Source: Candidatus Firestoneibacteriota bacterium
Lineage (GTDB): Bacteria > JACRDZ01
Length of the DNA: 5,299 bases
Direction of reading: 5' to 3'
Assembly: GCA_016212735.1 (NCBI GenBank)
Contig: JACRDZ010000261.1
Coordinates: 1-5,299 of the forward strand
The position numbers were made by a program, and so were the translations under genes. Under the pieces are notes generated by a model. The model was not told the DNA's origin. It did not search any database and was given only the letters and a program-made list of their open reading frames with translations. Shown here in pieces: positions 1 to 5,299 of the stretch. Within the stretch, counting starts at the first letter, position 1. Each line of letters begins with the position of its first letter.

Positions 1-26
1 CTTCGCACAGCCGCCGCCCGTTATCT
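1..26 (+). other. Probable right half of an integron attC site (window-truncated)
   Basis: This is a GC-rich stretch at the window edge in an otherwise AT-rich region. It ends in a CCGTTAT core (18-24) that matches the CCGTTAT at 4737-4743, where a more complete attC-like hairpin is present. In an attC site the right R box begins with GTT and strand exchange falls after its G, which would put the cassette start at 21. The next gene starts about 50 bases later, a normal leader length for a cassette. The left half lies outside the window, so pairing cannot be checked. GCCCG (16-20) can also pair with CGGGC (35-39), a weaker alternative reading. Confidence 0.4.
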
Positions 27-59
27 GCTCATTGCGGGCTTATTAGCTTAAATTAAAAG

Positions 60-64
60 AGGAG
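60..64 (+). promoter_or_regulatory. Ribosome binding site of the maturase gene
   Basis: AGGAG stands eight bases before the ATG at 73, inside a purine-rich run (AAAAGAGGAGAAA). It fixes the start codon. No convincing sigma-70 promoter is seen in the short leader upstream. Confidence 0.75.
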
Positions 65-72
65 AAATTGTA

Positions 73-1464
73 ATGTCCGATTACTATGTTTGCCAAAACT
101 CTCATGTTTCGTGGCGTTCAATTGCCGATCATGTATTAATAGTTGACCATAAGAGAAGACAGTTGCTTACATTAAACAATGTTGCTGGAACAATATGGGA
201 ATTATCTGACACATGGACACATGTAGACCATATTGTGGCGTGTATACAAAATATTTACGACATTGATCTCAACACGGCAAAACAAGATGTATTACCTTTT
301 ATAGAATACCTTTTAGCAGAAGAACTTTTAATTACGAACAAAAGCCACGTAAAACCATCACTAAAAACAGATAATAAATGGTCAAATTGTTTTAATGAAA
401 ATATACCCGCAGATTTAAAATCCTTTTGCTTAAAAAACAGTATTCCCCTTGTTGGTCTTTTAGAAATTACCGAACATTGTAATTTACACTGTCAACACTG
501 TTACAACTCTCCCAAAAAAACCAAAGAACTATCCTTCTCTGAAATAACATCAACGTTAGATAATTTGGCTTCACTTGGTTGCCTTGACCTCTTGATTACT
601 GGAGGTGAACCTACCACACGCTCTGATTTTTTAAATATATTATGGTATGCAAGGAAAAAAAAGTTTTCAATAACCTTAAAAACAAATGCTACGAAAATAG
701 ATAATCTTCTTGCACAATTTTTGAAAAAAGCCTTTGTTGTTGAAGTTCATTTTAGTATATATAGTTTGCTTGCCGATGAACATGATGCAATAACTGGTGT
801 ACATGGTTCACTTAATAAAACACTTATAGGAGTAGAAAATCTTAGAACCGCTGGGTTAAAAGTCAATATAGCCTGCCCCCTTACAAAGATAAATTATCGA
901 TCAGTAAAACAAGTAAAAGAATTTGCTTTAAAAATATGGGCTAACTGCGGTTTTGATCCAGCCATTACTGCAAAAATAGATGGAGATAAATCACCAATAA
1001 ATTTAAGGCTTGAGACAACAGAATTAGATCAACTATATGAAAGCAAAATTTATTCTGAGATTATTTTTCCTCATTTATTAAATACTAGCGATACTTCTTC
1101 AACGGGGGTGGCTACCTTATCAAAAAAAGAAACAAATCTTCCTGTATGTGGCGCTGGTAGTTCCATGGTTTGTATTACTGCTTATGGTGATGTAATTCCT
1201 TGCGTCGCGCTTCCGCTTGTTGCTGGCAACATACGGGAGAAATCATTAAAAGAAATATGGAAAACTTCTGCTGTTTTGAAAGAAGTTAGATCTCTAACGT
1301 TTGATAAGTTTACAGAATGTAAAAATTGCGAAAAAATTTCAGTTTGTATGAGATGTCCGGGCATATTTTACTCTGACAACGGTAATATTTTTATGCCATC
1401 TCAAGCTATTTGTCTTATTGCTAGTTATTCCAAAAAAACAATAAAAGATGGCGAACTTGATTAG
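73..1464 (+). CDS. PqqD-like/radical SAM/SPASM peptide maturase
   Basis: This is a 463-residue RiPP-modifying enzyme. Residues about 5-92 look like a PqqD-type recognition domain (beta strands around VLIVDHKRRQLLTLN, then helices ending YLLAEELL), which binds the leader of a precursor peptide. The radical SAM core starts near 125: C136, C140 and C143 form the CxxxCxxC motif that ligates the [4Fe-4S] cluster used to cleave S-adenosylmethionine, and GGEP at 177-180 is the SAM-binding motif. A full C-terminal SPASM domain follows, with C359-x12-G-x4-C377, a further C367, then C416-x2-C419-x5-C425-x2-C428-x18-C447, enough to hold two auxiliary clusters. Such enzymes are cytoplasmic, oxygen-sensitive and install thioether, C-C or related crosslinks. 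The two four-cysteine peptide genes 70 bases downstream are the obvious substrates, so cysteine thioether chemistry (sactipeptide or ranthipeptide type) is the first guess, but the bond type cannot be read from sequence. I cannot place it in a named subfamily. Confidence 0.92.
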   Translation: MSDYYVCQNSHVSWRSIADHVLIVDHKRRQLLTLNNVAGTIWELSDTWTHVDHIVACIQNIYDIDLNTAKQDVLPFIEYLLAEELLITNKSHVKPSLKTDNKWSNCFNENIPADLKSFCLKNSIPLVGLLEITEHCNLHCQHCYNSPKKTKELSFSEITSTLDNLASLGCLDLLITGGEPTTRSDFLNILWYARKKKFSITLKTNATKIDNLLAQFLKKAFVVEVHFSIYSLLADEHDAITGVHGSLNKTLIGVENLRTAGLKVNIACPLTKINYRSVKQVKEFALKIWANCGFDPAITAKIDGDKSPINLRLETTELDQLYESKIYSEIIFPHLLNTSDTSSTGVATLSKKETNLPVCGAGSSMVCITAYGDVIPCVALPLVAGNIREKSLKEIWKTSAVLKEVRSLTFDKFTECKNCEKISVCMRCPGIFYSDNGNIFMPSQAICLIASYSKKTIKDGELD

Positions 1465-1465
1465 C

Positions 1466-1515
1466 AAAAAAAGTATATGCTACCATGTATACTTCCGAGA
1501 AGAATAAATCCACTT
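1466..1515 (+). pseudogene. Vestigial third copy of the precursor-peptide N-terminus
   Basis: Read in the frame of the maturase, immediately after its TAG stop, this stretch encodes KKYMLPCILPRRIN. That aligns with the KKTYTPPCILSRIN start of the precursor at 1685, with one extra codon. The DNA is alike too: ACCATGTAT is shared, and a CGAGA...ATAAAT segment follows in both. The YxxPxI motif and its cysteine are kept, but everything after residue 16 is lost and the frame runs into the ribosome binding site of the next gene. An ATG at 1477 opens a 35-codon frame ending at 1584, but it has no good ribosome binding site and overlaps the intact precursor. It is best read as the remnant of a tandem duplication. 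Confidence 0.6.
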
Positions 1516-1519
1516 ATAA

Positions 1520-1527
1520 AGGAGGTG
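1520..1527 (+). promoter_or_regulatory. Strong ribosome binding site of precursor 1
   Basis: AGGAGGTG is a near-perfect anti-16S match seven bases before the ATG at 1535. It is the best Shine-Dalgarno in the window. That supports translation of this very short gene at a high level, as expected for a substrate made in excess over its enzyme. Confidence 0.8.
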
Positions 1528-1534
1528 AAAACAA

Positions 1535-1648
1535 ATGAAAAAAATGTATACACCACCATGTATCCTTTCGAGAACAAATGTTGAATCTACAATGGGAATG
1601 GGATGCCCTACTCATGGTATTCGTTCCCAGATTAGTTGTAAGTGTTGA
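1535..1648 (+). CDS. RiPP precursor peptide 1, 37 residues, four cysteines
   Basis: This short gene is the likely substrate of the maturase upstream. The peptide begins MKKMYTPPCILSR and ends QISCKC, with cysteines at 9, 24, 35 and 37 and a GMGCP segment in the middle. YTPPCI (residues 5-10) fits YxxPxL/I, the leader motif bound by PqqD-like domains in lasso-peptide and related systems, so recognition by the maturase's N-terminal domain is likely. Unusually, a cysteine sits inside that motif, and the peptide has no GG-type cleavage site or obvious leader/core boundary. Evidence that it is a real gene: the strong ribosome binding site, a near-identical paralogue 36 bases downstream, and seven synonymous changes against one amino-acid change outside a short variable patch. 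The product is too polar for a membrane peptide. The type of modification and the activity are unknown; a metal-binding peptide or a bacteriocin are both possible. I recognise no named family. Confidence 0.85.
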   Translation: MKKMYTPPCILSRTNVESTMGMGCPTHGIRSQISCKC

Positions 1649-1670
1649 AAAACATGAAATAAACAAAAAA

Positions 1671-1680
1671 GGAAGGTGAG
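1671..1680 (+). promoter_or_regulatory. Ribosome binding site of precursor 2
   Basis: GGAAGGTGAG precedes the ATG at 1685, with its AAGG core eight bases from the start. It is weaker than the site of precursor 1 but clear. It also separates the two peptides into independently translated genes rather than one broken frame. Confidence 0.65.
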
Positions 1681-1684
1681 CCTT

Positions 1685-1801
1685 ATGGACAAGAAAACAT
1701 ACACACCACCATGTATCCTATCGAGAATAAATGTTGAGTCTACGATGGGAATGGGATGTCCTGGTCATCTGTCTTCGCAGCAAATTAGTTGCAAGTGCTG
1801 A
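1685..1801 (+). CDS. RiPP precursor peptide 2, 38 residues, four cysteines
   Basis: This is a paralogue of the peptide at 1535. It begins MDKKTYTPPCILSRINVES and ends QQISCKC, with cysteines at 10, 25, 36 and 38 in the same spacing. From the tyrosine onward the two align without gaps. They share the YTPPCILSR start, the GMGCP centre and the ISCKC end, and differ at one leader residue (T/I), at the residue after GMGCP (T/G), and in a four-residue patch between His28 and Gln33 (GIRS versus LSSQ). Fixed cysteines with a variable loop suggest that the cysteines are modified and the patch sets specificity (inference). It probably shares the maturase transcript. No exporter, protease or immunity gene follows, so maturation would need genes elsewhere or a protease of the host cell. 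Confidence 0.85.
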   Translation: MDKKTYTPPCILSRINVESTMGMGCPGHLSSQQISCKC

Positions 1802-1809
1802 AATTAAAA

Positions 1810-1843
1810 TTAGGGGATGACCATAAAAGCATAAAAGAATTAA
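1810..1843 (+). repeat. Copy A of a 34-bp repeat preceding an attC-like site
   Basis: This segment starts with TTAGGGGA and contains CATAAAAG and ATAAAAGA. It matches 4635-4668 at 28 of 34 positions without gaps. Both copies lie just after the last gene of a block and just before an attC-like hairpin. In this copy TTAGGGGAT (1810-1818) also has a near-complement, ATCCCTAA (1844-1851). The function is unknown; it could be a shared 3' untranslated or cassette-end sequence. Confidence 0.7.
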
Positions 1844-1845
1844 AT

Positions 1846-1927
1846 CCCTAACAATGCGCTACAGTGGATTGGTGACAGCGGCGAAAAAACCGCCGCCGTC
1901 ACCAACCCCTGAGCTTTAACGTACGAA
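1846..1927 (+). other. Probable integron attC site with long imperfect hairpin
   Basis: The left box CCCTAAC (1846-1852) is followed by an unpaired AATGC spacer. Then comes a long stem: GCTACAGTGG (1858-1867) pairs with CCCCTGAGC (1906-1914) with A1861 bulged and one mismatch, A1868 is bulged, and 1869-1883 pairs with 1891-1905 with one mismatch (A1877/C1897) around a seven-base A-rich loop. The right spacer TTTAAC and the core GTACG (1921-1925) close it. Left box, spacer, paired arm with bulged A's, and variable apical stem is the attC plan. TAACAATGCGCT is also a familiar attC left end. The odd point is that the right core reads GTA where GTT is expected, as if one T were lost, so this site may recombine poorly. 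It is not a usual terminator, because no T-run follows. Confidence 0.6.
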
Positions 1928-2086
1928 ATATAAAAACCAAATAAAACAAAGATAAATAAGTTTTCAGTGGACAAAATTGATAAATAAATTTGAATTGTTA
2001 ATATTACATCGAATTGCATTAAGATTAAAACAAATATAAAAATAAATAAAACTAAATAAAAAAATTAAAAATAATTAAAATTACAA

Positions 2087-2130
2087 CTTAATCAATACAG
2101 CGGACTTTTAACACGCAGGCGAAGAAAGAT
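2087..2130 (+). repeat. Degenerate attC-like left half, direct repeat of 4684-4727
   Basis: TTACAAC, then TAATCAAT, then CAGCGGAC and ACGCAG occur here in the same order and spacing as in the attC-like site near 4691, where they read TTACAAC, TAATCAAT, CACGGGAC and ACGCAG. CAGCGGAC would be a good attC left arm with its bulged A, but the matching right arm (CCGCTG) and a GTT core are missing, so no stable hairpin forms. It looks like a decayed or truncated site just upstream of the beta-helix gene. Confidence 0.5.
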
Positions 2131-2146
2131 AAAGAATTATAAAAAC

Positions 2147-2152
2147 AGGAGG
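2147..2152 (+). promoter_or_regulatory. Ribosome binding site of the beta-helix gene
   Basis: AGGAGG lies seven bases before the ATG at 2160. It fixes the start and keeps the lysine/arginine-rich N-terminus of the signal sequence. Confidence 0.75.
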
Positions 2153-2159
2153 ATATATA

Positions 2160-4610
2160 ATGAACAAACGCAGAAAAGAAAAGATTTATAGAAAAAATTT
2201 ATCTATAATTATTTTTGTGGTGTTTATCATTTTTTTTATTGTATGCAATACCTCTTTTGTTTTTTGTAGTATTTTAAATGTACCGGCAGATTATGTAACG
2301 ATTCAGGATGCTATTACTGCGGCTGGAGAAGAAGATACAATTCAGGTTGCCCCCGGAGTTTATAATGAAAACCTAATTTGGAATTCTAAATCAATACATC
2401 TTATTGGTTCTGGAGCCGACACTACAATTATTGATGTTTTAGGTTCCGGAAGATGCTTAACAATGACTTCTGTACCTGCCTTTGCAACAATTACTGGTTT
2501 TACATTCAGAGGAGGAAATGTAAGTAACTATGGTGGAGGATTATATCTTGACCATTCGCATCCAACTTTGTCTAATAATATTATAATCGAAAATATAACA
2601 ACAGCCAGTAGATCTCTGGGTGGAGGAATTTATATTAATTATTCTAATCCTGTTTTAATTAATAATATAATTAAGAAAAATCGATGCAGCGATGAAGGCC
2701 GTGGAGCTGGAATTTTTCTTAACTATTCTTTAGCAACTTTGAGAAATAATATTATTACAGAAAATTTTACATATAAAGGCCGTGGTGGTGGAGTCTATCT
2801 TCAATTTTCTTCTCCTGAAATAACTGATAATATTATTACATTCAATACTGCCAGCAATTCCCTTGGATTAGGCGGTGGTTTATTTCTTATTGCTTTTTCT
2901 AATCCGAAAATTTCTAGAAACACAATAGAGAGCAACTTGGCAGACTCCAAAGGCGGTGGAATGTGGATAGATAATAATTCTAAGCCAATAATTAGTAATA
3001 ACATTATATCAAAAAATAGTGCGCGATGGGGTGGTGGTGGTATAGGAATGGAACTTTCTGCTCCAACTATCACAAATAATACTTTTTCTTCAAATACTAA
3101 TATAGCAACTAATGGCGGAGCATTTTATATTAATGCTTCTACACCAAAAATACAAAATAATACAATAATAGGTAATTCAACTGCAAGTGCAGGTGCAGGA
3201 TTATATATTGTTAATTCTATTGCAGAATTAACCAATAATATAATTGTAAAGAATTACGGGCGTTATTATGGAGCGGGAGTATATCTTGATAATGCTTCCT
3301 CAATCTTGATAAATAATACAATATCAGAAAACAGTTTACTTCTTGGTAATGCAGGTGCAGGAGTTTATAACTATGGAACAGGTGTCCCTAATATTACAAA
3401 TTGTATTATATGGGGAAATAAAGGAGCTTCGGATCTTAGTGGAACCACTGCAACTTTTTCAGATGTCGGAACAGGTGAAGCAAGCGGTAACGGAAATATA
3501 TCAATTAATCCGATGTTTATAGATACTTCAAATAATGATTATCATCTGCAATCAGGCTCACCATGTGAAAACACCGGAACTTTAAATAATGCACCCGAAT
3601 ATGATTTTGACGGGGAACCAAGACTTGCTTCGTCAGGAGGAGATGGCATCCCTGATATTGGTGCGGATGAAATATTGAATAATAAGTCACCTAAAGCAAG
3701 TGGAGGTAATGATATTAATATATTAACCTCTGAACAGCCACTTACTATTATTTTAGGACTGGCAAGCGATGAAGATGGAGATGCATTAATTTATAGATGG
3801 ACTGAAAATGGAATAGTTCTCCTTGATTGGACAGATACCGGTGAAAATGGTGAGGCAAATCTTAATCTTATACAATTATCAGCATTGAGTGCTGGTGTCC
3901 ATAATTTAACTTTGGAAGTATCTGACGGAAAATTAACTGCAAGCGATACTATGATATTAACAGTTGCAAATACTCCTCCTGTTTCTGCACCGGCAGGTGG
4001 CGGGACATTTGAAATTTTTACGAATATTAATTTATCAGGAACCGTATCAGACTATGATGGTGACATTTTAAGCTATAGATGGTATGACAGTAATACAGAA
4101 TATAGATCAGGTTCAATTAAAACCAATAGTGGCGGTGCACCTGTTGAGGTTCCTGTTTTTACAATCGAAGGTGGGCTTCCTCTGGGAATATATGAAATAT
4201 TTTTAGAAGTTTCAGATGGAGTAAATCCTGCTGTTAAAAATAAAATTACTATTGTTACTCTTGATACAACTGCCCCAACTTTAACACCAGAATCAAATAT
4301 AATGATCCTTTGGCCTCCAAATGATAAAATGGTTGATATCTTAATTAGTGCAAATGTACAAGATAATAGTGGCTCATCTATACTTGATGTTATAGTTAAT
4401 TGCGCTGATCCTGATTTGGATGAAAATGATATACTTGTTGTTGACATTAACCAAACAACAGGATTAATAAAACTACAATTAAGAGCAAAAAGAACAGGTT
4501 ATTCAAACGAACGAATTTATAATATTGCTATAACTGCTACAGATGCATCATTAAACTCATCAAGCGCAGCAGTAAGCATTGTCAGTCCTCACGATCAGAG
4601 AAAAAAATAA
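2160..4610 (+). CDS. Exported right-handed beta-helix protein with Ig-like and LWPPN C-terminal domains
   Basis: This is an 816-residue envelope or secreted protein. Residues 1-13 are strongly basic and about 14-36 are hydrophobic, giving a Sec signal peptide or anchor; Cys36 does not sit in a good lipobox. Residues 40-100 resemble the start of DUF1565/NosD-like pectate-lyase folds (VPADYVTIQDAITAA, APGVYNENL). Eleven coils of about 27 residues follow (125-420), each GGG-[hydrophobic]-Y near the start and NN-x-I-xx-N near the end. The strand exit with YHLQSGSPC and DIGADE (about 461-504) is typical of this class. Two Ig/cadherin-like domains follow (about 510-603 and 605-701), with repeated DEDGD/DYDGD and LEVSDG motifs. 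The last domain has LWPPND at 717-722 and ends SPHDQRKK, matching a C-terminal module common in surface proteins of deltaproteobacteria and relatives (LWPPNHK...VPHDQ). A role in adhesion or glycan binding is likely; enzyme activity cannot be claimed. No link to the RiPP locus is evident. Confidence 0.9.
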   Translation: MNKRRKEKIYRKNLSIIIFVVFIIFFIVCNTSFVFCSILNVPADYVTIQDAITAAGEEDTIQVAPGVYNENLIWNSKSIHLIGSGADTTIIDVLGSGRCLTMTSVPAFATITGFTFRGGNVSNYGGGLYLDHSHPTLSNNIIIENITTASRSLGGGIYINYSNPVLINNIIKKNRCSDEGRGAGIFLNYSLATLRNNIITENFTYKGRGGGVYLQFSSPEITDNIITFNTASNSLGLGGGLFLIAFSNPKISRNTIESNLADSKGGGMWIDNNSKPIISNNIISKNSARWGGGGIGMELSAPTITNNTFSSNTNIATNGGAFYINASTPKIQNNTIIGNSTASAGAGLYIVNSIAELTNNIIVKNYGRYYGAGVYLDNASSILINNTISENSLLLGNAGAGVYNYGTGVPNITNCIIWGNKGASDLSGTTATFSDVGTGEASGNGNISINPMFIDTSNNDYHLQSGSPCENTGTLNNAPEYDFDGEPRLASSGGDGIPDIGADEILNNKSPKASGGNDINILTSEQPLTIILGLASDEDGDALIYRWTENGIVLLDWTDTGENGEANLNLIQLSALSAGVHNLTLEVSDGKLTASDTMILTVANTPPVSAPAGGGTFEIFTNINLSGTVSDYDGDILSYRWYDSNTEYRSGSIKTNSGGAPVEVPVFTIEGGLPLGIYEIFLEVSDGVNPAVKNKITIVTLDTTAPTLTPESNIMILWPPNDKMVDILISANVQDNSGSSILDVIVNCADPDLDENDILVVDINQTTGLIKLQLRAKRTGYSNERIYNIAITATDASLNSSSAAVSIVSPHDQRKK
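2532..3419 (+). repeat. Eleven tandem parallel beta-helix coils (protein-level repeat)
   Basis: Coils begin at residues 125, 154, 182, 209, 238, 265, 292, 319, 345, 371 and 399, spaced 26-29 residues apart. Each has a glycine triplet or GAG, an aromatic two residues later, and an asparagine ladder (NN-x-I-xx-N). Stacked asparagines are a hallmark of beta-helix turns. The DNA of the coils has diverged, so this is an old repeat, not a recent expansion. Confidence 0.85.
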
Positions 4611-4634
4611 TTAAACTGAGAATTCATAAGGAAT

Positions 4635-4668
4635 TTAGGGGACTGTCATAAAAGTATAAAAGATTTAA
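4635..4668 (+). repeat. Copy B of the 34-bp repeat preceding an attC-like site
   Basis: It matches 1810-1843 at 28 of 34 positions, with differences mainly in the four bases after TTAGGGGA. It lies 24 bases after the stop of the beta-helix gene and about 23 bases before the attC-like hairpin, so its position relative to gene end and hairpin is conserved between two unrelated blocks. Confidence 0.7.
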
Positions 4669-4690
4669 TTAAAATAAATTAAAATTTACA

Positions 4691-4745
4691 ACATAATCAA
4701 TGCACGGGACTGCGAGTACGCAGCCCGTGATTTCTGCCGTTATTT
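4691..4745 (+). other. Probable integron attC site, short hairpin with bulged A
   Basis: CACGGG-A-CTGCG (4703-4714) pairs with CGCAG-CCCGTG (4719-4729) around an AGTA loop: eleven base pairs with one extrahelical A (4709), in the same place as in the site at 1846. Outside the arm are unpaired spacers (CAATG on the left, nine bases on the right). The outer boxes are ATAAT (4693-4697) and GTTAT (4739-4743), which pair apart from a G-T wobble. The GTT core suggests a recombination point after G4739, 53 bases before the next start codon. The left core reads AAT instead of the usual AAC. It could instead act as a weak terminator for the upstream gene, but no T-run follows. Confidence 0.6.
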
Positions 4746-4757
4746 CTAAAATTTTCA

Positions 4758-4786
4758 TTGACAATGTGCGCACAATATATTATTAT
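4758..4786 (+). promoter_or_regulatory. Sigma-70 type promoter of the toxin-antitoxin pair
   Basis: A consensus TTGACA -35 box (4758-4763) is followed after exactly 17 bases by TATTAT (4781-4786). The start codon at 4793 lies seven bases beyond the -10 box, where transcription would be expected to begin, so the transcript should have almost no leader. Confidence 0.7.
4765..4774 (+). promoter_or_regulatory. Palindromic operator between -35 and -10
   Basis: TGTGCGCACA is a perfect ten-base palindrome and a GC-rich island in AT-rich DNA, lying wholly inside the promoter spacer. Ribbon-helix-helix antitoxins repress their own promoter by binding such sites (established for type II systems). Binding by the antitoxin at 5067 is inferred. 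Confidence 0.6.
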
Positions 4787-4792
4787 TAAATT

Positions 4793-5065
4793 ATGGAATT
4801 CGAATTTAATGATAAGAAAAACAATCAGCTGTTTGAAGAAAGAGGAATAACATTCTATAATGTTATTGACTCAATAAATAAAAATGGAATCCTGCTAAAT
4901 TTCGAACATCCAAATAAAGAAAAATACCCTAAGCAAAAGATACTTGTTGTAAACATTAATAATTATGCTTATTGTGTACCCTATGTAATAAAAGGGAATA
5001 CATGTTTTTTAAAAACAATATTTCCGTGTAGAAAATTTAAATATTTAATTGAAAAGGATGAATAA
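4793..5065 (+). CDS. brnT: BrnT-like type II toxin
   Basis: This 90-residue protein resembles the BrnT family, small RNase toxins with a RelE-like fold that stop growth by cutting RNA when freed from the antitoxin. The N-terminus MEFEFNDKKNNQLFEERGI fits the family's F-x-W/F-xx-xK-xxxxxxxRGI start. Other family-like segments are HPNKEKYPKQKILVVN (about 39-54), YAYCVPYV (58-65) and FLKTIFPCRKFK (72-83), where relatives usually read KTIxPSRK. Phe replaces the common tryptophan near residue 5, and Cys replaces the usual Ser before the late arginine. The antitoxin gene starts one base after the stop. The promoter lies directly upstream and there is no Shine-Dalgarno, so initiation is probably leaderless. 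Toxin-first order is normal for brnTA. The family is called from remembered patterns, not a search. Confidence 0.8.
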   Translation: MEFEFNDKKNNQLFEERGITFYNVIDSINKNGILLNFEHPNKEKYPKQKILVVNINNYAYCVPYVIKGNTCFLKTIFPCRKFKYLIEKDE

Positions 5066-5066
5066 A

Positions 5067-5299
5067 ATGGATAAATATGAAATAGAGTATCTAAATAAAG
5101 AAGAAAAAGAATTGATGGAAGATATTAATAATATTGATGTTAAAACATTAAAACAACCTTCAAAAAAAGAACAAAAATTATTTAGAAAAGCAGCCAGAAA
5201 TTTTATTGCAAATGAAACAAAAATGAATATTAGACTTGACCCATATGAATTGAATAAAATCAAAGAAAGAGCTAATCACGAAGGTCTTACATATTCTGC
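5067..5299 (+). CDS. brnA: Ribbon-helix-helix (BrnA/CopG-type) antitoxin, 3' end outside window
   Basis: Seventy-seven codons are present before the window ends. Residues 1-50 are charged and helical (KEEKELMEDINNIDV, then KKEQKLFRKAARNFIAN), the part that usually wraps the toxin or precedes the DNA-binding fold. Residues about 52-77 (KMNIRLDPYELNKIKERA, then HEGLTYS) match the beta-strand and first helix of a ribbon-helix-helix domain, in which the strand residues contact the operator. The second helix is beyond the edge, and only a few tens of residues should be missing. It is co-transcribed with the toxin at a one-base gap. AAAAGGATG at 5053-5061 supplies a modest ribosome binding site. 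It should neutralise the toxin and repress the shared promoter, with the palindrome at 4765-4774 as the likely target. Confidence 0.8.
   Translation, partial: MDKYEIEYLNKEEKELMEDINNIDVKTLKQPSKKEQKLFRKAARNFIANETKMNIRLDPYELNKIKERANHEGLTYS

What the first reader, a model, noticed from the sequence alone, without database searches (positions are those of the whole stretch)
73..1801. Compact radical SAM RiPP locus with two unlabelled four-cysteine precursor genes
Just downstream of a fused PqqD/radical SAM/SPASM maturase lie two tiny genes (1535-1648, 1685-1801), each with its own ribosome binding site. They encode paralogous peptides with four conserved cysteines and a C-terminal CKC. They are below usual gene-calling length limits. 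I recognise no named RiPP class with this YTPPCILSR start, GMGCP centre and ISCKC end.
Basis: partly seen in the sequence, partly recalled or inferred. Interest (0 to 1): 0.85.

Follow-up and report, generated by a model that had tools for sequence, protein, structure and literature searches.

The report
Radical-SAM peptide system in integron cassette
A tiny gene set that probably makes two chemically cross-linked, cysteine-rich peptides appears to sit inside an integron gene cassette, the kind of mobile DNA unit best known for carrying antibiotic-resistance genes.

Summary
In detail: a fused PqqD(RRE)/radical SAM/SPASM maturase (73-1464) is followed by two paralogous four-cysteine peptides (1535-1648, 1685-1801) under amino-acid-level selection (dN/dS 0.20). 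No NCBIfam or Pfam model matches the peptides. Their N-terminus, YTPPCIL, fits the YxxP leader motif of lasso-type RREs, and the window's RRE is closest in PDB sequences to two lasso RREs. Distant maturases often sit beside YxxP-plus-Cys peptides (37 of 54 loci, a few spurious). The tree joins the window's clade (97/94) to a group of Verrucomicrobiota-phylum maturases; 8 of its 15 distinct loci have peptides with the same gapless Y..P.I...GCP layout. The RaS-RiPP reading is thus well supported. The left boundary rests on a half-site. No integrase or host genome is available. My searches of the held papers showed no report of an integron-borne radical-SAM RiPP. Chemistry (probably thioethers), product and role are unshown.

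The parts
21..1921 (+). proposed integron gene cassette (1901 bp) holding maturase, decayed precursor copy and two precursors; right edge G1921|T, left edge G20|T
   Evidence: attC at right end by covariance model; left edge only from half-site GTTATCT at 20-26, not detected by the model
1..26 (+). putative right half of an upstream attC (ends GTTATCT, compare GTTATTT of the attC at 4686-4745)
   Evidence: sequence reading only; no model hit here
73..1464 (+). PqqD(RRE)/radical SAM/SPASM peptide maturase, 463 aa
   Evidence: Pfam hits, AF2 model pLDDT 87.8 pTM 0.88, nearest structures SuiB, CteB, SkfB, TigE, PqqE
136..330 (+). RRE / PqqD domain, residues 22-86
   Evidence: PF05402; nearest PDB sequences lasso RREs 9x90 and TbiB1
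478..501 (+). radical SAM CX3CX2C motif, C136/C140/C143
   Evidence: nearly invariant in the 33-row alignment
1147..1413 (+). seven-Cys SPASM region, C359..C377, C416-X2-C419-X5-C425-X2-C428, C447
   Evidence: PF13186; C359 and C377 invariant, C416, C419, C425, C428 nearly invariant; C447 invariant in the six-row alignment
1466..1504 (+). decayed partial third precursor copy, reads KYMLPCILPRRIN in the maturase's frame after its stop
   Evidence: repeat family D5, 82% between it and copy 1 over 39 nt, 72% to copy 2
1520..1528 (+). Shine-Dalgarno of precursor 1
   Evidence: sequence
1535..1648 (+). precursor peptide 1, 37 aa, Cys 9, 24, 35, 37
   Evidence: ORF, dN/dS 0.20 against precursor 2
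1671..1679 (+). Shine-Dalgarno of precursor 2
   Evidence: sequence
1685..1801 (+). precursor peptide 2, 38 aa, Cys 10, 25, 36, 38
   Evidence: ORF (there listed from the upstream GTG 1676)
1846..1927 (+). attC recombination site closing the RiPP cassette (R'' CCCTAAC ... R' GTACGAA)
   Evidence: model R1 26 bits E 4.1e-7; bottom strand folds with z -6.8; alignment with attCs of other genomes
4686..4745 (+). attC closing the next cassette (beta-helix gene), R' GTTATTT
   Evidence: model R1 17.6 bits E 3.8e-4 with filters off; bottom strand z -4.3; not reported with default filters in a 264-kb search

Best explanation
This is a minimal radical-SAM RiPP (RaS-RiPP) unit carried as an integron gene cassette. 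Proposed steps. (1) The maturase's N-terminal RRE binds the YTPPCIL stretch of each precursor as a beta-strand (inferred from the motif and from homology to lasso RREs). (2) The radical SAM cluster cleaves SAM and the 5'-deoxyadenosyl radical takes a hydrogen from a core residue (established chemistry of the superfamily; not shown here). (3) The SPASM clusters hold a cysteine thiolate or take up the electron, giving thioether crosslinks from the core cysteines, most likely the GC(P) Cys and the two C-terminal Cys of SCKC (inferred). The Cys next to the YTPP motif lies at a variable position in relatives and is probably not a crosslink site. (4) Leader removal and export are done by host enzymes, since no protease or transporter gene is in the unit (inferred). 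The two precursors and one decayed copy point to repeated duplication. The attC site makes the whole unit excisable and insertable by an integron integrase (inferred).
For: Domains and motif cysteines. Fold neighbours are RiPP maturases such as CteB, ChlB, SkfB, SuiB, TigE and PqqE. Coding selection. RRE closest to lasso RREs, and YxxP is given as the lasso recognition sequence, with a W/Y/LxxP/L/I group that includes PqqD and StsC (PMC12710340, passages read). Equivalent peptides: 39 of 512 same-strand small ORFs near 54 distant maturase loci carry YxxPx[ILVMF] plus at least two later Cys, against 7 of 677 opposite-strand ORFs and 5 of 512 shuffled. Related-clade peptides share the gapless Y..P.[ILVM]...GC spacing (8 of 9; both window peptides; 16 and 19 of 200,000 shuffles), and the tree joins the two groups with 97/94 support. 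attC; both window sites (26 and 17.6 bits) outscore every match in 54 distant maturase loci searched without filters (258,796 bases, best 14.6 bits). Same attC type beside a true IntI in genome G534.
Against: A profile built from the nine related-clade peptides ranks window peptide 1 only second of 4163, with one shuffle above it, and peptide 2 is not among the eight best; a profile of the DEVLxxGCK peptides puts neither among its eight best. Seven of the 15 distinct loci of the related clade showed no GCP-type peptide in the fetched flanks. Four of five such loci examined more widely have an Amidohydro_2 gene next door that the window lacks. The left attC is not confirmed, and the second attC is missed with the model's default filters. 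No integrase is in the window and no host genome is held. No product or crosslink is shown.
Confidence: 0.7

Rival explanations
1. RaS-RiPP unit as above, but the modification is not a thioether: for example C-C or C-O crosslinks, epimerisation, or a small redox cofactor cut out of the peptide as in PQQ or mycofactocin.
For: Fold neighbours include SuiB, PqqE, TigE and the epimerase EpeE besides thioether enzymes; NCBIfam's best matches are AhbD, NirJ2, GeoRSP and mycofactocin maturases, all far below cut-off.
Against: Three cysteines of the core region (GC and CKC) are kept in both paralogs while the stretch between them changes, and Cys-rich cores recur next to related maturases, which fits chemistry at cysteine better than a cofactor.
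Confidence: 0.3
2. The RiPP unit is real, but the integron reading is wrong: the hairpins are chance or relic repeats and the locus is an ordinary chromosomal island.
For: No hit of the attC model at the left edge; R' of the 1846-1927 site is GTACGAA rather than the GTTRRRY I recall as consensus; none of 54 distant maturase loci shows an attC of this type (best match L054, 14.6 bits, E 0.065).
Against: A model built without the window finds only the two sites at unit ends in 5.3 kb (E 4e-7 and 4e-4, next 0.94). The alignment with attCs of other genomes is close in the outer boxes, and the same type lies on one contig with a bona fide IntI gene (425 bits over TIGR02249).
Confidence: 0.2
3. The two peptides are not substrates but free-standing small Cys-rich proteins (metal binding or regulatory) that happen to lie behind the maturase.
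For: No crosslink shown; C-terminal CKC could bind metal (inference).
Against: YxxPx[IL] leader at the N-terminus fits an RRE of lasso type; equivalent peptides accompany many distant maturases across phyla.
Confidence: 0.07

Closest known systems
CteB (5wgg/5why), SkfB (6efn), SuiB (5v1q/5v1s): radical SAM-SPASM RiPP maturases with an RRE-like N-domain
   Different: 17-21% identity in those alignments; precursors unlike those of SCIFF, SKF or streptide (recalled); PqqD-type RRE closest to lasso RREs
TbiB1 (5v1u/5v1v) and 9x90, lasso-peptide RREs
   Same: The only two PDB sequences matched by the window's RRE at E <= 0.1; leader motif YxxP as in lasso leaders
   Different: No lasso B2 protease or C cyclase in the window; RRE fused to a radical SAM enzyme
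Verrucomicrobiota-phylum maturases with YxxPxI...GCP peptides (L025, L046, L049, L052, L053, L055, L058, L061; not in NCBIfam or Pfam as far as tested)
   Same: Grouped with the window's clade (97/94); gapless Y-to-Cys spacing of 19, GCP or GC in most (L055 DCP, L061 GCA)
   Different: Peptides lie upstream of the maturase, an Amidohydro_2 gene follows in 4 of 5 wider loci, no attC of this type found, 26-31% identity to the window's maturase
KxYxKPxI...DEVLxxGCK...GS peptides beside maturases in Omnitrophota, Planctomycetota, Acidobacteriota, Lentisphaerae
   Same: YxxPx leader, Cys-rich core, peptide next to the maturase, mostly directly behind it
   Different: Different core; maturases in another part of the tree
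Integron gene cassettes
   Same: Genes between attC sites, start codon 46-47 nt after the preceding R' box, 3' attC with R''/L''/L'/R' boxes
   Different: Three-gene, 1.9 kb biosynthetic unit, where one or two genes are usual (recalled)

Membership tests
RRE-dependent radical SAM RiPP (RaS-RiPP) | RRE plus radical SAM core with CX3CX2C plus SPASM in the maturase | tested here: met
RRE-dependent radical SAM RiPP (RaS-RiPP) | short precursor gene next to the maturase with a leader that fits the RRE | tested here: met
   motif match only, binding not tested
RRE-dependent radical SAM RiPP (RaS-RiPP) | SAM-dependent modification of the precursor | not testable with these tools
   needs co-expression and mass spectrometry
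SCIFF / ranthipeptide | six Cys in about forty-five residues (recalled definition of SCIFF) | tested here: not met
   four Cys in 37 and 38 residues; no NCBIfam hit for either peptide
Sactipeptide | Cys sulphur to alpha-carbon thioethers | not testable with these tools
   needs structure of the product
Lasso peptide | B2 protease and C cyclase genes with the RRE | tested here: not met
   no such gene among the six proteins of the window scanned; the rest of the genome is not held
Integron gene cassette | attC site at the 3' end of the unit | tested here: met
   1846-1927, E 4.1e-7, fold z -6.8
Integron gene cassette | recombination point of a preceding attC or attI at the 5' end | tested here: inconclusive
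   half-site GTTATCT at 20-26 only; window begins inside it; no model hit
Integron gene cassette | integron integrase gene in the same array or genome | not testable with these tools
   no genome held; same attC type lies on one contig with IntI in another genome, G534

The most novel reading that the evidence does not exclude
A complete RiPP maturation unit (RRE-radical SAM-SPASM enzyme plus duplicating precursors) is mobilised as an integron gene cassette. Integrons would then be a vehicle for swapping peptide natural-product pathways between bacteria, and the YxxPxI...GCP peptides a RiPP class that crosses at least two lineages and is not yet in the family libraries.
Probability: 0.55. Interest if true: 0.68.

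Novelty: new variant of a known kind. Interest (0 to 1): 0.52.

Why it matters
Radical-SAM RiPPs and integrons are both well known. A self-contained RiPP unit packed into a gene cassette is not described in any title or abstract start that my searches of the held library listed (several lists were capped). If true, cassette arrays become a place to look for modified peptides. The small unit (one enzyme, two peptides) is also easy to test in laboratory E. coli. The comparison with the related clade predicts which cysteines are modified and which motif the RRE reads, so both can be checked directly.

Tried and rejected
Protein search with the precursor (41-aa form) found no homologue, and a related-clade peptide found only an identical record. 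A tblastn of the precursor in plasmids found nothing; whole-window megablast in plasmids found nothing; blastn of the 1840-1930 attC stretch in plasmids found nothing. Viral contigs gave nothing with the maturase, the alignment or a precursor pattern. The genome-contig scan gave 9 loci, all distant (23-28%). Of the plasmid relatives (694 records, none over 60% identity) I looked at two: Thiodictyon L010 (YcaO/TfuA neighbours, 33.6%) and one Salmonella plasmid, L011 (27.7%). In neither did I recognise a YxxP-Cys peptide next to the maturase. Rfam gave only sub-threshold matches. The related-clade peptide profile is too weak alone to prove kinship with the window's peptides, so I rest on spacing and tree. 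A proposed third attC-like stretch near 2085-2125 was dropped: the model did not find it. My first check of the 54 maturase loci for attC used default filters that also missed the window's own second site, so I repeated it with filters off; the result did not change.

Dropped or qualified rows. In one search the automatic count is 37 of 54 loci; by eye the hits in L024 and L053 and the first of two in L030 look spurious. Wider looks added GCP-type peptides in L049, L052, L053 and L055 and candidates in L032 and L037. L020/L052 and L022/L055 overlap, so 52 loci are distinct. Where a locus holds two maturases, centred on the better match only. For Omnitrophota I examined the 24 best of the 78 places listed; for the G003 phylum 26 loci covering 30 of the 33 places listed, plus L003 for a 31st (G488 and G468 were not fetched). 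Fifteen attC-like sites were extracted; L084:3283 was left out of the alignment because its next R'-like box lay too far off, 89 nt (14 of 15 used).

Full report
What is in the window. The 5299-base window is 33% G+C. All main genes are on the + strand: a 463-aa maturase (73-1464), two small ORFs (1535-1648 and 1685-1801), an 816-aa beta-helix/PKD protein (2160-4610), and a two-gene unit (4793-5065, then 5067 onward, open at the window's end) with below-cut-off similarity to DUF4258, BrnT and NikA-like families.

The two peptides. They align over 38 codons including the stop with 22 identical codons, 9 synonymous changes and 7 amino-acid changes; dN/dS is 0.20. Five of the seven amino-acid changes fall between the GCP and ISCKC parts. 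No NCBIfam or Pfam family matches them. A third partial copy, decayed, lies at 1466-1504 (82% to copy 1 over 39 nt) and reads KYMLPCILPRRIN in the maturase's frame after its stop codon.

Relatives. A search of 5.8 billion proteins (7997 candidates scored, best 120 listed) put eight close relatives on top (P0001-P0008, 43-92% identity, largest contigs 1.7 to 14 kb, no organism named); the next is at 38% over three quarters of the length. None of that clade turned up in one scan of 84,980 species genomes, where only nine distant loci were found. Their DNA could not be reached, so the direct test (same peptide behind each close maturase) remains open. I therefore tested distant relatives. In Omnitrophota (phylum of G007) 55 of 237 genomes, and in the phylum of the Lentisphaerae MAG L003 (Verrucomicrobiota in GTDB, recalled) 26 of 288 genomes, hold a maturase at E <= 1e-30. 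Around 54 such loci, 39 of 512 same-strand small ORFs have YxxPx[ILVMF] followed by at least two Cys, against 7 of 677 on the opposite strand and 5 of 512 after shuffling; at least one occurs in 37 of 54 loci, some spurious by eye (see Tried and rejected). Typical examples are KxYxKPxI...DEVLxxGCK...GS peptides within 180 bp behind the maturase (L001, L002, L003, L026, L029, L041).

The related clade. A second type, Y..P.[ILVM][ILV]A..........GC[PA]...C..C, occurs upstream of fused maturases in L025, L046, L049 (two), L052, L053, L055, L058 and L061 (L055 has DC for GC). It aligns without a gap from the Tyr to the Cys with the window's peptides. The spacing pattern Y..P.[ILVM].{12}GC matches 8 of these 9 peptides and both window peptides, but only 16 and 19 of 200,000 shuffles of the two window peptides; a stricter pattern matched 7 of 9, both window peptides and no shuffle. 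The patterns were drawn up after seeing the alignment, so these numbers are not clean probabilities. The maturase tree of 75 rows joins the window clade (9 rows) to an 18-row group that holds all eight of these loci (97/94 support for the 27 rows; midpoint root), apart from the DEVLxxGCK group. Against this: a profile of the nine peptides scores window peptide 1 only second among 4163 sequences, with one shuffle above it, and peptide 2 lower; seven of the 15 distinct loci of that clade showed no such peptide in the flanks I fetched; and both groups hang on long branches. Four of five wider loci of that clade (L089, L090, L091, L093) carry an Amidohydro_2 protein directly behind the maturase; in L092 none was seen in the ORF list. 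The window has none.

Leader reading. A 2025 paper on RREs (PMC12710340; passages read) lists YxxP as the lasso recognition sequence and describes a W/Y/LxxP/L/I group that includes PqqD and the sactipeptide RRE StsC. The window's YTPPCIL and the relatives' YxKPx[ILV] fit. I infer that the N-terminal third of the peptide is the leader. The fifth residue of the motif is Cys in the window but K, T, A or Q in the nine related-clade peptides, so Cys9 is probably not a crosslink site; the GC(P) Cys and the C-terminal Cys pair are the likely ones.

The integron. Directly behind the second peptide lies an 82-base site that reads CCCTAACAATGCGCTACAGTGGATTGG...CCAACCCCTGAGCTTTAACGTACGAA. Its bottom strand folds far better than 200 shuffles (z -6.8), as does a second site behind the beta-helix gene (z -4.3). 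To test the attC reading I looked for the same sequence type elsewhere. A pattern search found it in 3 of 97 Omnitrophota genomes and 5 of 119 genomes of the Planctomycetota phylum. Of four such genomes one, G534, holds an integron integrase over cut-off (425 bits against TIGR02249, cut-off 265), with four such sites 0.9 to 1.8 kb away on the same contig and more on others; the other three have only below-cut-off matches, as do all 14 control genomes. A covariance model built from 14 sites (12 of G534, one each of Omnitrophota genomes G053 and G067; none from the window) finds in the window, with filters off, just two matches above noise: 1846-1927 (26 bits, E 4.1e-7) and 4686-4745 (17.6 bits, E 3.8e-4); the next has E 0.94. 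The same search over the 54 distant maturase loci (258,796 bases) gives nothing above 14.6 bits (L054, E 0.065), and over five wider loci (69,722 bases) nothing above 12.3 bits. So both window sites outscore all of that DNA, and an attC of this type is not seen beside the distant maturases; other attC types would be missed. The unit therefore runs from about 21 (G20|TTATCT) to 1921. The left edge is only a half-site at the window's start and the model does not see it; the likeness of its R' (GTTATCT) to that of the other site (GTTATTT) and the similar distance to the start codon (46 and 47 nt) support it weakly.

Literature. Searches for integron together with RiPP, radical SAM, bacteriocin or biosynthetic terms (listings seen only; 20 of 55 papers listed, 15 of 23, 15 of 161) listed no paper whose title or abstract start describes a RiPP or radical-SAM peptide system as an integron cassette. 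The single paper with attC, integron and radical SAM (PMC7070040, listing only) is titled as a study of multidrug-resistance megaplasmids. The library lacks most subscription journals, so this is weak evidence of absence.

Verdict. Ordinary in class (an RRE-radical SAM-SPASM RiPP unit), with an uncatalogued precursor type that seems to have distant kin, and unusual in its likely integron-cassette setting. Shown by computation: coding selection, domain make-up, association of YxxP-Cys peptides with related maturases, two attC sites. Inferred: kinship of the GCP peptides, leader binding, thioether chemistry, mobility, function.

Noticed in passing
window 1922-4739: Next proposed cassette: 816-aa right-handed beta-helix/PKD protein (PF13229, PF22352) with a hydrophobic N-terminus, preceded by about 240 bp of AT-rich DNA, 2.8 kb in all, closed by the second attC.
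   Followed up: partly
window 4740-5299: A two-gene unit with a strong promoter-like sequence (TTGACA-17-TATTAT at 4758-4786) and below-cut-off DUF4258/BrnT and NikA-like similarity; looks like a toxin-antitoxin cassette.
   Followed up: partly
window 1810-1844 and 4635-4668: Both proposed cassettes carry nearly the same stretch (TTAGGGGA....CATAAAAG.ATAAAAGA.TTAA) shortly before their attC; unexplained.
   Followed up: no
window 1466-1504: Decayed third precursor copy between maturase and precursor 1, in frame with the maturase's stop codon.
   Followed up: partly
L089 5868-6629, L090 5707-6477, L091 7580-8341, L093 7737-8576, L010 6586-7395: Amidohydro_2 proteins directly behind related-clade maturases, and in a YcaO/TfuA locus on a Thiodictyon plasmid: possibly a RiPP tailoring or leader-removal enzyme.
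   Followed up: partly
Omnitrophota genomes (phylum of G007), for example L026, L029, L041, L042, L044: A set of KxYxKPxI...CK...C...C...GS-like precursor peptides behind radical SAM/SPASM maturases; of the six diverse peptides tested (five of them YxxP types from other phyla or Omnitrophota) none matches a precursor family in NCBIfam; 55 of 237 genomes have a maturase of this kind at E <= 1e-30.
   Followed up: partly
L091 3442-3819 (+); L046 3281-3535 counted on its reverse complement: Small proteins with CxYCG..YG..C.....H.H zinc-ribbon-like motifs close to the precursors in the same genomes.
   Followed up: no
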